DNA of 64,000 nucleotides from Planctomycetota bacterium (GTDB lineage Bacteria; Planctomycetota; UBA1135): contig JAQBXR010000012.1 of the NCBI GenBank assembly GCA_027623295.1, positions 32,121 through 96,120 of the forward strand, read 5' to 3'. The notes under the pieces are model-generated. The model searched no databases. It was given only the letters and a program-made list of their open reading frames with translations, and was not told the DNA's origin. Made by a program: the position numbers and the translations under genes. This document shows, in pieces, positions 11,443 through 34,602 of the stretch; the stretch's first letter is position 1, and the number at the start of each line of letters is the position of its first letter.

Positions 11443-11448
11443 CAGCTC

Positions 11449-11455
11449 TAGGATA
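11449..11455. promoter_or_regulatory. Divergent -10-like element TAGGATA/TATCCTA between the sigma54 activator (-) and the YkgJ gene (+)
   Basis: TAGGAT ends 11 nt before ATG 11466; TATCCT ends 7 nt before ATG 11442 on the other strand. Confidence 0.5.
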
Positions 11456-11465
11456 CCCTGTTCCT

Positions 11466-20751: not shown

Positions 20752-21495
20752 TTAGGCAAGGTCTTTGACGCGACTTCCCGGCACCAGGTCTTCGCGACCA
20801 TCCTCGAAACGGACCCAGCATTTAGTGCCACCGTCATAATCTCGCGCGCGCAATAAGAGCTTGGCAGGATTACCAAAGGCCAAACACGAAGAGGCCGCCG
20901 CTTGATCCAAGCCTCGCCACTTACGCAAAAAAGGGTTCTCCTCCCACTCCCTGGCGATGGTCGATGGGTCCATATGCCCGGGATAAACTTCCGTTTGCTT
21001 TGGAAGTTTCATTAACCTTTCCATAACCGAATGCTGCATTTCCTCAAAAGTAGTGTGACCAGGAGCTCGGGTTCCGCCTACCGAATCACGGAAGAGAGTA
21101 TCGCCAGTGAACACAGCCTTTTCATTGACCAAAAAGGCAAGCTGCCCAGCGGTATGCCCAGGGATGTGTAAAGCACGCACTACAAGGCTGCCACTGCGCA
21201 CTTCCTCGCCATCGGCAAGAGTTTGGGTGAGACCAGGAATCAGTTCTTGCTCAGCGGAATGGCCACAAACCGGACATGAAAACTCATCGGCCCAGGCATG
21301 GTTATGCGTCACATGATCATGATGATGATGGGTATTCAAAATATGCGTGGGAGTTAAGGAAAACTCCTCAATGGCCGCCAATAAGGGTTCTTGCGGCCCT
21401 CCCGTATCAATGAGCACGGCATGCCCACCGGGTTTATCTGCCACCAACCAACTATTGGAAAGCCATTCAGAATCGCGACTATGTCTGATGATCAT
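20752..21495 (-). CDS. MBL-fold metallo-hydrolase (glyoxalase II/persulfide dioxygenase-like)
   Basis: ILNTHHHHDHVTHNHAW, HIPGHTAGQLAFLV, FTGDTLFRDSVGGTRAPG; start set at MIIRHS. Confidence 0.88.
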   Translation of the reverse strand: MIIRHSRDSEWLSNSWLVADKPGGHAVLIDTGGPQEPLLAAIEEFSLTPTHILNTHHHHDHVTHNHAWADEFSCPVCGHSAEQELIPGLTQTLADGEEVRSGSLVVRALHIPGHTAGQLAFLVNEKAVFTGDTLFRDSVGGTRAPGHTTFEEMQHSVMERLMKLPKQTEVYPGHMDPSTIAREWEENPFLRKWRGLDQAAASSCLAFGNPAKLLLRARDYDGGTKCWVRFEDGREDLVPGSRVKDLA

Positions 21496-21504
21496 GCTGC
21501 CTAC

Positions 21505-21511
21505 TAGGATA
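21505..21511. promoter_or_regulatory. Divergent -10-like element TAGGATA/TATCCTA between the MBL gene (-) and mtfA (+)
   Basis: 10 nt to ATG on each strand (21521 + and 21495 -). Confidence 0.55.
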
Positions 21512-21520
21512 CACTCCGGC

Positions 21521-22288
21521 ATGTTTGCATGGTTACGTCGACGGCGCCGCGTCCGCCTAGGAAAGCAAGGTTTGCCAGCAGATTTGGTGCAGTGGCTTGA
21601 GGTCTTGCCTTTTATTGACCACCTCAATAGCGAAGAACGTAAACGTCTAGAGGCTTTGGTGTGTGTGTTTCTTGCTGAGAAGAATTTTGAAGGCTGCAAT
21701 GGCTTGGAAATGCGTGACAAAATCCGCGTGGTGATTGCAGCGCAGGCGTGTCTTTTGATCTTGAATTTGGATCATGTTTTCTATCAAAAGGTGAAGACCA
21801 TTTTGGTTTATCCATCTACCTTCCGACATCGCTCGCAGCAGACGACTGCTGGCGGAGTCGTTGAAAACAGAGAGCACACCAATCTTGGCGAAGCTTGGCC
21901 CAACGGCCCCATCGTGCTGGCCTGGGATCACGCCTACCAAGGCGGACGTAACCCGGACGATGGCCAGAACACCGTTTTCCATGAGTTCGCGCACAAGCTC
22001 GACATGCTTGATGGCATTACCGACGGCATTCCTCCACTCACGCTTGCGCATGAAGAAGATGCGTGGAGAATGCGCATGGATGCCGCTGCATTACGTCATA
22101 AGGAGATGGCGCAGCGAGGTGTGCCATTGTTCCTGGATAAATATGGCGCCACGCATCCTGCAGAGTTTTTTGCAGTAGCTACCGAAATGTTCTTTGAACG
22201 ACCGCGTGATTTACAAAAGCGTGAAGCGGAAGTTTATGACTTACTGATGACCTTTTACCGGCAAGATCCAGCGGCGAGCAAGAGTTAG
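21521..22288 (+). CDS. mtfA: MtfA-like zinc peptidase
   Basis: NTVFHEFAHKLDMLDG, HPAEFFAVATEMFFERP; start set at 21521. Confidence 0.9.
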   Translation: MFAWLRRRRRVRLGKQGLPADLVQWLEVLPFIDHLNSEERKRLEALVCVFLAEKNFEGCNGLEMRDKIRVVIAAQACLLILNLDHVFYQKVKTILVYPSTFRHRSQQTTAGGVVENREHTNLGEAWPNGPIVLAWDHAYQGGRNPDDGQNTVFHEFAHKLDMLDGITDGIPPLTLAHEEDAWRMRMDAAALRHKEMAQRGVPLFLDKYGATHPAEFFAVATEMFFERPRDLQKREAEVYDLLMTFYRQDPAASKS

Positions 22289-31450: not shown

Positions 31451-32035
31451 TTAACGACGCGGGAACAAGCCTTGCTTTTCGTAGTACTGCTGATGGTAAT
31501 TCTCAGCACGAATGAAGTCCTTGGACTCCACCACGCCGGTGCTTATAGGCTTACTAAAACGACCTGAGCTGGCCAGGCTAGCTTTAGAAGACTCCGCCAT
31601 TTTACGCTGTTCTTCACTGTGGAAGAAAATAACCGCGCGATATTGATCGCCGATGTTCACGCCTTGACCATTCGCTTGGGTAGGGTCGTGATTCTCCCAA
31701 AAAATATCAAGCAGCTGCTCGTACTGAACTTTGGACGGATCATAGGTCACATGAACGGCTTCCGCGTGTCCGGTTTCACCAGAACAAACTTGTTGATAGG
31801 TTACATCTGGAACGGTGCCGCCGACATAGCCGACCTCAGTGGAAATTACGCCATCTACAGCACGGTAGATAGCTTCGACGCCCCAGAATCAGCCCGCTGC
31901 AAAGGTGGCTTCTTGGATGTTCATCGAGGCAGGGGTCGCAGGTTGGGTGGTGTCAGGATTGGAGTCCATCGGTTTTCCGGTGCTACACGCTACGGCAAGC
32001 AGGCCGAAGGCTAGGCTGATCAGAGTGGTACGCAT
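31451..32035 (-). CDS. msrA: Peptide-methionine (S)-S-oxide reductase MsrA, selenoprotein candidate: [109 protein letters not shown]...
   Basis: Reverse-strand translation is uninterrupted MsrA except for one TGA at the catalytic Cys (GCFWG -> G-U-FWG). The track reports only the 99-aa C-terminal part (31451..31750). AGGAGG lies 4 nt before the ATG. Confidence 0.9.
31850..31873 (-). promoter_or_regulatory. Candidate bacterial SECIS hairpin in msrA
   Basis: RNA GCUAUCUAC-CGUGCU-GUAGAUGGC: 9-bp stem (one G-U), 6-nt loop with G at position 2; loop begins 24 nt after the UGA. Confidence 0.75.
31889..31891 (-). other. In-frame TGA, predicted selenocysteine codon of msrA
   Basis: GCC ACC TTT GCA GCG GGC TGA TTC TGG GGC GTC GAA = A T F A A G * F W G V E. 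Confidence 0.9.
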
Positions 32036-32044
32036 GGTTCCTCC

Positions 32045-32051
32045 TAGGATA
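32045..32051. promoter_or_regulatory. Divergent -10-like element TAGGATA/TATCCTA between msrA (-) and the DUF2891/SGNH gene (+)
   Basis: 11 nt to ATG 32062 (+), 10 nt to ATG 32035 (-). Confidence 0.55.
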
Positions 32052-32061
32052 CACTCCGCCT

Positions 32062-34191
32062 ATGTCCCTGACCGCTTTGCTGCTTTCTTGTATACCTGCC
32101 ATGAGTCAAACCCCAGCCCTTGAGGACCAGCAAGTTGCCTCATTCGCCCGCCTTGCCCTCGACAGCATCGTGCGTGAGTTCCCCAACAAGCCAGGCCAGG
32201 TCTACACGGGCCCGGAATCGGCAGTGGTCCCGCGCGAGCTGCACCCGGTGTTTTACGGTTCTTTCGACTGGCATTCCTCCGTGCACGGCCATTGGATGCT
32301 GGTACGACTACTCAAAACCCAACCTGGGTCTTCCGTCGATGCCGAGATTCGCGCTTTATTACACGCGCAGCTCACCGCCGAAGCTCTGCAAACCGAAGCC
32401 GATTACTTTGATGAAAAGCAGAACAAGAGTTTTGAGCGTATGTATGGTTGGGCTTGGTTGCTTCAGTTAGCAAACGAACTCCACACTTTCGAGGATGACG
32501 ATGCCAAGCAATGGGCGGCAAACCTCAAACCGCTGGAAGATCAAGTGGTGGATTTGCTGCATGGATATTTGCCACGCCTTGCGCACCCCATCCGCACCGG
32601 AGTGCATCCCGACACCGCATTTGCTTTTGGCATGGAGCTGGATTACGCCCGTGCGGTTGGCAACCAAGAGTTGGAAAAAGCCCTGGTCGCGAAGGTGCTT
32701 TCCTTTTATCAAGCAGACACCGAATATCCAGTGCAGTATGAACCATCCGGCGAGGACTTCTTCTCCGCAGGATTAAACGAAGCCGATCTCATGCGTCGCG
32801 TTTTACCACAGAAGGAGTACCTCATCTGGCTCGATGCATTCTTTCCGGGACTCGCTTCTGGAGCCATGGGTAAGGTATTAACCCCCACCCAAGTTTCCGA
32901 TGTCACGGATGGCCGTTTGGTGCATCTTGCGGGCCTGAATCTTTCCCGTGGATGGACCTTAGAGGGCATAGTCTCTGCCTTGCCAGAGAATGACGCGCGT
33001 CGTGAAGTCCTTCAAACTGCAGCTCTAGCACACAGAAAGGTGGGGCTGGAATACGTATTCAGTGGCCACTTTGAAGGGGAGCACTGGCTGGCATCCTTCG
33101 CAATTTACTTAGTCACGCAAGCTGGCCAAATCGTGGAAGTGGAAGGTGCAAATCCAACTCCTACCCCAATACCAAACCAAGGCTCAGGCTCTTCGGAATC
33201 TAATACGCCACCACCAGTAACACCTGCCCCAGAACCAACACCCACTCCAACCCCTACTCCAGAACCAACACCTGAGCCAGCACCAACCCCAACCCCTACT
33301 CCGACACCACCCAACAACACATCATACTCAAATGATATTAATGTGTATTTTGTAGGTCACAGTCTTGTAGGCCATGAGCTACCTGCAACGCTCGCTCATA
33401 TTTCAACCAGCTTAGGAAAGCAGTACAGCAACACATTGCAAGTACTCAACGGCGCCCCCCTATTCTGGCAATGGCGTGGAAGAATTGATGCCTTGGACGA
33501 CACATCTGGAGCTTCGTGGAGGACTGCAGGATCAGCATACACAGATATGCAAATCTGGGACAATGGATTCCCTCCACCCATTCAGCCACAATTTGGCTGG
33601 GGAAATGCTCGCGACGACCTGTCCTCTGGCGATTATGACGTCGTCATACTCACCGAAGGGATCGACGAAAATGTAGAATTTGTTGAGCAATTTGCTAATG
33701 TCAACACTAGACTATATGCATCAAAATACTACAACCTCGCTGTAGCAAGCAACCCAAATGTTCGTGTGTACCTATACGAAACATGGCCATGGACCTACCA
33801 ACAAAACTACCGCTCAAACCTAGACGCGTACCGTAATGCTTGGGAACCAATTATGGATCATGTAAACGCACAAGGTGCTGGTAACGATATGAAGATTATC
33901 CCTGGTGGACAAGCAATGGCGCGTCTCTACGACGAAATTGCTGCTGGAAATGTCCCCACAGTTTCTTCAATTGATGATTTTTATGACGACGGCATTCACA
34001 TCAATGAGCTTGGTAGATATTACATATCACTTGTGATGTACGCTACGATTTATGGAGAAAACCCTGCTGGTGCACCAGCAGAATCACATCTCTTACATTC
34101 GGCTGGTCTCGCACCGGTCAACGCTGCACTTGCCACCACACTCCAGCGTCTTGCCTGGGAGACGGTGAGTGCATATCCACGCGCGAGATAA
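32062..34191 (+). CDS. DUF2891 domain joined by a Pro/Thr-rich linker to an SGNH-hydrolase-like domain
   Basis: N-terminal ELHPVFYGSFDWHSSVHGHWMLVRLL ... HWLASFAIYLVTQ (DUF2891-like); TPTPTPEPTPEPAPTPTPTPTP linker; C-terminal VYFVGHSLVGHELPATLAHI ... DDGIHINELGRYYISLVMYATIYG. Confidence 0.75.
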   Translation: MSLTALLLSCIPAMSQTPALEDQQVASFARLALDSIVREFPNKPGQVYTGPESAVVPRELHPVFYGSFDWHSSVHGHWMLVRLLKTQPGSSVDAEIRALLHAQLTAEALQTEADYFDEKQNKSFERMYGWAWLLQLANELHTFEDDDAKQWAANLKPLEDQVVDLLHGYLPRLAHPIRTGVHPDTAFAFGMELDYARAVGNQELEKALVAKVLSFYQADTEYPVQYEPSGEDFFSAGLNEADLMRRVLPQKEYLIWLDAFFPGLASGAMGKVLTPTQVSDVTDGRLVHLAGLNLSRGWTLEGIVSALPENDARREVLQTAALAHRKVGLEYVFSGHFEGEHWLASFAIYLVTQAGQIVEVEGANPTPTPIPNQGSGSSESNTPPPVTPAPEPTPTPTPTPEPTPEPAPTPTPTPTPPNNTSYSNDINVYFVGHSLVGHELPATLAHISTSLGKQYSNTLQVLNGAPLFWQWRGRIDALDDTSGASWRTAGSAYTDMQIWDNGFPPPIQPQFGWGNARDDLSSGDYDVVILTEGIDENVEFVEQFANVNTRLYASKYYNLAVASNPNVRVYLYETWPWTYQQNYRSNLDAYRNAWEPIMDHVNAQGAGNDMKIIPGGQAMARLYDEIAAGNVPTVSSIDDFYDDGIHINELGRYYISLVMYATIYGENPAGAPAESHLLHSAGLAPVNAALATTLQRLAWETVSAYPRAR

Positions 34192-34222: not shown

Positions 34223-34309
34223 TTGTAACAATATAGAATCCCCGAGGCAGAGCCACCAGGGTATTACCCTTTCTAAGATATACATTTAATACATGTCATC
34301 CTCCTCCCA

Positions 34310-34550
34310 TTCGACTACACTGCGTTTCGCAGAAGGTGACACGGTGTAGGTAGGAGTGAGACCCGTTCGACTACACTTCGTTTCGTTCAGGGTGACAATA
34401 CTAGCGTGTGTCATACTGAGCGGAGTCTCAAGTGTAACGGAAGGCGTAGTCGAATGTATCTCGTGCGGCATAGCAAAGTGTTCCTTGCTATGCTTGAGAC
34501 CCGTTCGACTACACTTCGTTTCGCTCAGGGTGACACGGTGTAGGTAGGAG
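34310..34550. repeat. Intergenic repeat island: three direct copies and one inverted copy of a TTCGACTACACTTCGTTTCGYTCAGGGTGACA-type unit
   Basis: Direct units from 34310, 34358 and 34497; inverted unit 34409-34454; internal 9-bp inverted repeat GCATAGCAA/TTGCTATGC at 34468-34493. Confidence 0.8.
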
Positions 34551-34565
34551 AATCCCTTACTTACA

Positions 34566-34602
34566 AATACTAAAAAAACCCTAGACGGGTGTTTTTAGTA
34601 TT
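34566..34602. terminator. Bidirectional intrinsic-terminator-like hairpin
   Basis: AATACTAAAAAAACCC-TAGAC-GGGTGTTTTTAGTATT; A- and T-rich flanks, downstream of the minus-strand gene ending at 34614. Confidence 0.75.

What the first reader, a model, noticed from the sequence alone, without database searches (positions are those of the whole stretch)
21495..21521. Second copy of the same divergent promoter architecture (MBL hydrolase / mtfA)
CCTACTAGGATACACTCCGGC separates the two start codons. It shares the 15-mer CTAGGATACACTCCG exactly with the msrA intergenic region. Spacing is 10 nt to the ATG on both strands. Recurrence of the extended 15-mer at two unrelated divergent pairs suggests a conserved promoter or regulator motif rather than chance.
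Basis: seen in the sequence. Interest (0 to 1): 0.6.

Follow-up and report, generated by a model that had tools for sequence, protein, structure and literature searches.

The report
Two-way promoter for leaderless genes
The short DNA word shared by two gene pairs is most likely a two-way bacterial promoter: two face-to-face −10 boxes share their central T-A letters and start a nearly leaderless message on each strand. It is a tidy, conserved combination of known parts in an uncultured planctomycete.

Summary
CTAGGATACACTCCG is exact at 21504 and 32044, both times between divergent start codons. The 14-mer occurs only these two times in the 2.45 Mb genome. A repeated 15-mer is not itself rare in this window. 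What is non-random is its position, plus a third near-copy at 11448 and further copies elsewhere.

The functional unit is smaller than the 15-mer: A-NNN-TA-NNN-T, a −10 hexamer on the minus strand (TATCCT) and one on the plus strand (TACACT) sharing the central TA pairs. This genome uses leaderless −10s widely: TANNNT is about 7-fold enriched exactly 6 nt before ATG, with no −35. Facing −10s in this register occur between divergent ATGs 6 times in 791 kb, plus the msrA pair; 15 control cores average 0.5. AGGATACCCT is the invariant block of the orthologous spacer in seven genomes. At mtfA one relative has different letters (ATTCTAGACT) but the same layout. The gene pairs are functionally unrelated, so a dedicated regulator is unlikely.

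Verdict: a bidirectional σA-type promoter of the described 23-bp class (18-bp class overlapping), used here for two near-leaderless mRNAs; a new variant of a known kind. Start sites are inferred, not mapped. Side finding: msrA is probably a selenoprotein.

The parts
21493..21495 (-). ATG start codon of the metallo-beta-lactamase-fold hydrolase (gene 20752-21495)
   Evidence: PF00753; the G003 orthologue begins at the same codon
21506..21511 (-). minus-strand -10 hexamer TATCCT, 10 nt before the ATG
21510..21515 (+). plus-strand -10 hexamer TACACT, 5 nt before the ATG of mtfA; shares T21510-A21511 with the minus-strand -10
21505..21511 (.). TAGGATA, the overlapping 18-bp-register reading (plus-strand TAGGAT, minus-strand TATCCT)
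21521..21523 (+). ATG of mtfA-like M90 peptidase (gene 21521-22288)
   Evidence: PF06167
32033..32035 (-). ATG of msrA (31451-32035; in-frame TGA at 31889-31891 at the catalytic Cys position)
32046..32051 (-). minus-strand -10 TATCCT, 10 nt before the msrA ATG
32050..32055 (+). plus-strand -10 TACACT, 6 nt before the DUF2891 ATG (32062)
32062..34191 (+). DUF2891 protein gene
11450..11455 (-). third site: minus-strand -10 TATCCT, 7 nt before the ATG (11442) of an FHA/GAF/sigma54-activator gene
11454..11459 (+). third site: plus-strand -10 TACCCT, 6 nt before the ATG (11466) of a CxxCxxCC-domain gene

Best explanation
The shared word is a bidirectional housekeeping-sigma promoter reduced to two -10 elements on opposite strands. 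The -10s overlap so that T(-12)/A(-11) of one are base-paired with A(-11)/T(-12) of the other (A-NNN-TA-NNN-T; here AGGATACACT). RNA polymerase can bind in either orientation, one at a time. Transcription then starts about 7 bp beyond each -10, which puts the two start points about 23 bp apart, at or within a few nt of the two ATGs (24-27 bp apart). Both mRNAs are therefore leaderless or nearly so, and a 23-26 nt spacer serves as promoter for two genes. At the mtfA and msrA sites an extra T also creates the 18-bp register TAGGATA. Shown here: sequence, position, register, conservation. Inferred: start sites, sigma-A use, competition between orientations.
For: 1) TANNNT peaks sharply before ATG in 791 kb of this genome: 55 at 6 nt (also 21, 30 and 18 at 7-9 nt) against about 8 per distance background, no peak for AT...A, and no -35 signal upstream. 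2) Facing -10s in the shared-TA register between divergent ATGs with ORFs of at least 100 aa: 6, plus msrA whose ORF stops at the TGA. The 15 other symmetric cores total 8; separated, non-overlapping registers give 0. 3) Unbiased 7-mer ranking: TAGGATA and AGGATAC have the highest ratio of copies between divergent starts. 4) CTAGGATACNC: 7 copies genome-wide, 0 for the reversed pattern; 5 between divergent starts, 1 at a single start, 1 in coding sequence. 5) Conservation: the FHA/CxxCxxCC spacer keeps AGGATACCCT in 7 of 7 genomes, 10/10 core columns against 1/13 flank columns (Fisher p about 1e-5); a second site keeps AGGATACGCT in 5 of 5; mtfA keeps AGGATACACT in G003; msrA/DUF2891 keeps it in G003 (L176) and G004. 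6) Same layout, new letters: mtfA/MBL in G005 has ATTCTAGACT; in G001 an insertion separates TAGAAT-6-ATG from TAAACT-5-ATG. 7) A G003 DUF2891 copy with another gene upstream still has TACACT-6-ATG. 8) Unrelated gene functions.
Against: No RNA data exist. The minus-strand -10 is 10 nt from its ATG at both focal sites, just outside the main 6-9 nt peak, implying a 3-4 nt leader. Those leaders carry SD-like strings (AGGAGG, AGTAGG), though at 4 nt spacing rather than the 7 nt where AGGAGG peaks here. C before ATG is not specific to -10-bearing genes. The TAGGATA (18-bp) and A...TA...T (23-bp) readings overlap at the focal sites and cannot be separated by sequence there; one other site (TIM-barrel/HEAT pair) conserves only the 18-bp reading. 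Small samples of relatives gave no further facing pairs.
Confidence: 0.82

Rival explanations
1. Only the plus-strand gene uses the motif (one leaderless -10); the minus-strand resemblance is the complement of a Shine-Dalgarno stretch (CCTAGGAGG) of a gene transcribed from further upstream.
For: msrA has AGGAGG and the MBL gene AGTAGG 4 nt before ATG; SD-led genes do exist in this genome (GGAG peak at 8 nt).
Against: TATCCT is conserved with the TA at a site without an SD (FHA gene: TATCCT followed by AGAGCTG in G000, TTAGCCC in G004); G005 mtfA/MBL changed to TAGAAT-6-ATG on the minus strand; SD spacing is 3 nt short of the genome norm.
Confidence: 0.1
2. AGGATACNCT is the operator or promoter word of one dedicated regulator or alternative sigma factor that controls a small set of divergent pairs.
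For: AGGATAC recurs with the same letters at most of the sites and is near-palindromic (AGGNTANCCT).
Against: Gene pairs are unrelated; position is locked to leaderless -10 spacing; other sites keep only A...TA...T with different letters (G005 mtfA, L120, L137); each half occurs alone upstream of single genes at the same spacing.
Confidence: 0.06
3. Chance repeat of a 15-mer, or a dispersed repeat.
For: Exact 15-mer repeats are not rare in 64 kb.
Against: Positional bias, whole-genome rarity, third and later copies, orthologous conservation.
Confidence: 0.02

Closest known systems
Bacterial bidirectional promoters from -10 symmetry (Warman et al. 2021, cited in PMC10268837; PMC12825309)
   Same: Overlapping -10s on opposite strands; divergent TSS spacings of 18, 10 and 23 bp reported. 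The inferred spacing here is 23 bp (and 18 bp for TAGGATA).
   Different: [quoted passage not shown] here both RNAs are leaderless or nearly so mRNAs and the whole intergenic region is the promoter core. Worked out in E. coli and Salmonella; here in Planctomycetota.
Leaderless genes with a TANNNT -10 about 12 bp before the start codon (PMC3160421; Deinococcus-Thermus PMC12340547)
   Same: TANNNT, first T 12 bp before ATG, no evident -35.
   Different: Those studies treat one gene per -10. 'Planctomycet' does not occur in the main text of either paper.

Membership tests
bidirectional -10 promoter | two -10 hexamers overlapping on opposite strands in a known register | tested here: met
   23-bp register, 18-bp register also readable
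bidirectional -10 promoter | divergent TSSs 7-25 bp apart by TSS mapping | not testable with these tools
   no RNA data; 23 bp inferred from geometry
bidirectional -10 promoter | initiation in both directions by one sigma holoenzyme, mutually exclusive | not testable with these tools
   needs in vitro transcription
leaderless gene (TANNNT class) | TANNNT with first T about 12 bp before the start codon, enriched genome-wide | tested here: met
   peak at 6 nt gap; plus-strand genes at 5-6 nt
leaderless gene (TANNNT class) | same spacing for the minus-strand genes at the two focal sites | tested here: inconclusive
   gap is 10 nt (short leader implied); 7-8 nt at other sites
transcription-factor regulon | functionally related targets and letter-for-letter operator conservation | tested here: not met

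The most novel reading that the evidence does not exclude
A genus-wide class of minimal divergent gene pairs in Planctomycetota in which a 10-bp double -10 is the entire intergenic regulatory region, giving two near-leaderless mRNAs from one shared TA step and thus obligate competition between neighbouring genes.
Probability: 0.55. Interest if true: 0.5.

Novelty: new variant of a known kind. Interest (0 to 1): 0.42.

Why it matters
It joins two separately described phenomena, bidirectional −10 promoters and leaderless mRNAs, into one minimal and evolutionarily conserved arrangement. It supplies comparative evidence (conserved core, turnover of letters with the layout kept) that such promoters are selected rather than incidental. 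It also suggests abundant leaderless expression in a planctomycete lineage, for which the papers searched here report nothing, and offers a 25-bp natural device for testing polymerase competition between two coding genes.

Tried and rejected
Rejected: rarity of a 15-mer repeat as evidence (many exact 15-mer repeats in the window). The C before ATG as a start-site signature: also about 50% in genes without a −10. A −35 element: none by composition or by consensus scan. A facing-pair survey in small samples (68-100 kb each) of four relatives found none, too little sequence to conclude. The first tests on 440 kb were only suggestive and needed the 791 kb sample.

Full report
OBSERVATION. CTAGGATACACTCCG is at 21504 and 32044. 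Both copies lie between divergent start codons: 21495(−)/21521(+) and 32035(−)/32062(+). The 14-mer has two copies in the 2.45 Mb genome and none for the reversed control. Exact 15-mer repeats are not rare in the window, so significance rests on position. TAGGATAC occurs 8 times in 791 kb; 7 copies lie within 17 nt of a start codon and 5 lie between divergent starts.

ANATOMY. Plus strand: TACACT-5-ATG (mtfA) and TACACT-6-ATG (DUF2891). Minus strand: TATCCT-10-ATG at both. The two hexamers share the central TA (AGGA-TA-CACT). A third site at 11450-11459, AGGATACCCT, has TACCCT-6-ATG and TATCCT-7-ATG. In this genome TANNNT is enriched at 6 nt (55 against about 8) and 7-9 nt before ATG, with no −35 and a mild preference for G two bases before the hexamer (28/55) and C at its fifth base (27/55). 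Those preferences, read on both strands at once, favour AGGATACNCT, which would explain why the same letters recur. This last step is inference.

REGISTER TEST. Between divergent ATGs (5-10 nt each side, ORFs of at least 100 aa) the A...TA...T core occurs 6 times, plus msrA, whose ORF stops at the TGA. The 15 other symmetric cores give 8 in total (mean 0.5; a hand Poisson estimate for 6 or more is about 2e-5). Separate, non-overlapping −10s give 0. Unbiased 7-mer ranking puts TAGGATA and AGGATAC first by ratio.

CONSERVATION. FHA/CxxCxxCC spacer: AGGATACCCT in G000-G006 (7 genomes, two genera), 10/10 core columns invariant against 1/13 flank columns. Esterase/MltA spacer: AGGATACGCT in 5 of 5. 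TIM-barrel/HEAT-VWA spacer: TAGGATAC in 5 of 5, which fits the 18-bp register (TANNNTA) instead. MBL/mtfA: identical core in G003; ATTCTAGACT in G005; split into two ordinary leaderless −10s in G001. msrA/DUF2891: same core in G004 and one G003 copy; the other G003 copy lies behind a different gene and still has TACACT-6-ATG.

MECHANISM AND COMPARISON. Warman et al. report bidirectional promoters with TSSs 18 bp apart most often, 10 and 23 bp also common, and exclusive polymerase binding. In the 18-bp class −7T and −11A are reciprocally paired. The shared-TA register predicts 23 bp by geometry. Leaderless TANNNT genes about 12 bp from the start are described, and in Deinococcus-Thermus about 30% of ORFs carry them. 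A library search for papers on leaderless genes with bidirectional promoters gave nothing relevant, and searches for leaderless genes in Planctomycetes gave no study of the subject.

ORGANISM. Nearest named records are uncultured Planctomycetota (NORP40, 82% identity in MtfA).

SIDE FINDING. msrA has TGA at the catalytic Cys of GCFWG, also in G004. SelB is above its cut-off, tRNA-Sec is present, and a 9-bp hairpin lies about 18 nt after the start of the TGA. It is probably a selenoprotein MsrA; bacterial Sec-MsrA is known (Clostridium oremlandii).

Noticed in passing
31889-31891 (-), msrA 31451-32035: In-frame TGA exactly at the catalytic Cys (ATFAAG*FWGVEA), conserved in G004. SelB and tRNA-Sec are present in the genome and a hairpin follows the TGA: probable selenocysteine MsrA, which ORF callers would truncate.
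   Followed up: partly
34306-34550: Three imperfect copies of a 51-nt unit with inverted parts in the gap after the DUF2891 gene, followed by a hairpin with A/T-rich arms at 34566-34602.
   Followed up: no
32062-34191: The DUF2891 gene here is fused through a Pro/Thr-rich linker to a C-terminal domain weakly like DUF4886; orthologues in the genus have shorter open frames.
   Followed up: no
L169/L176 (G003:C19): Tandem duplication of the DUF2891 gene in G003; the inner copy has its own leaderless-type TACACT-6-ATG.
   Followed up: partly
L172 (G005:C21): The DUF2891 match in G005 contains one in-frame TAG.
   Followed up: no
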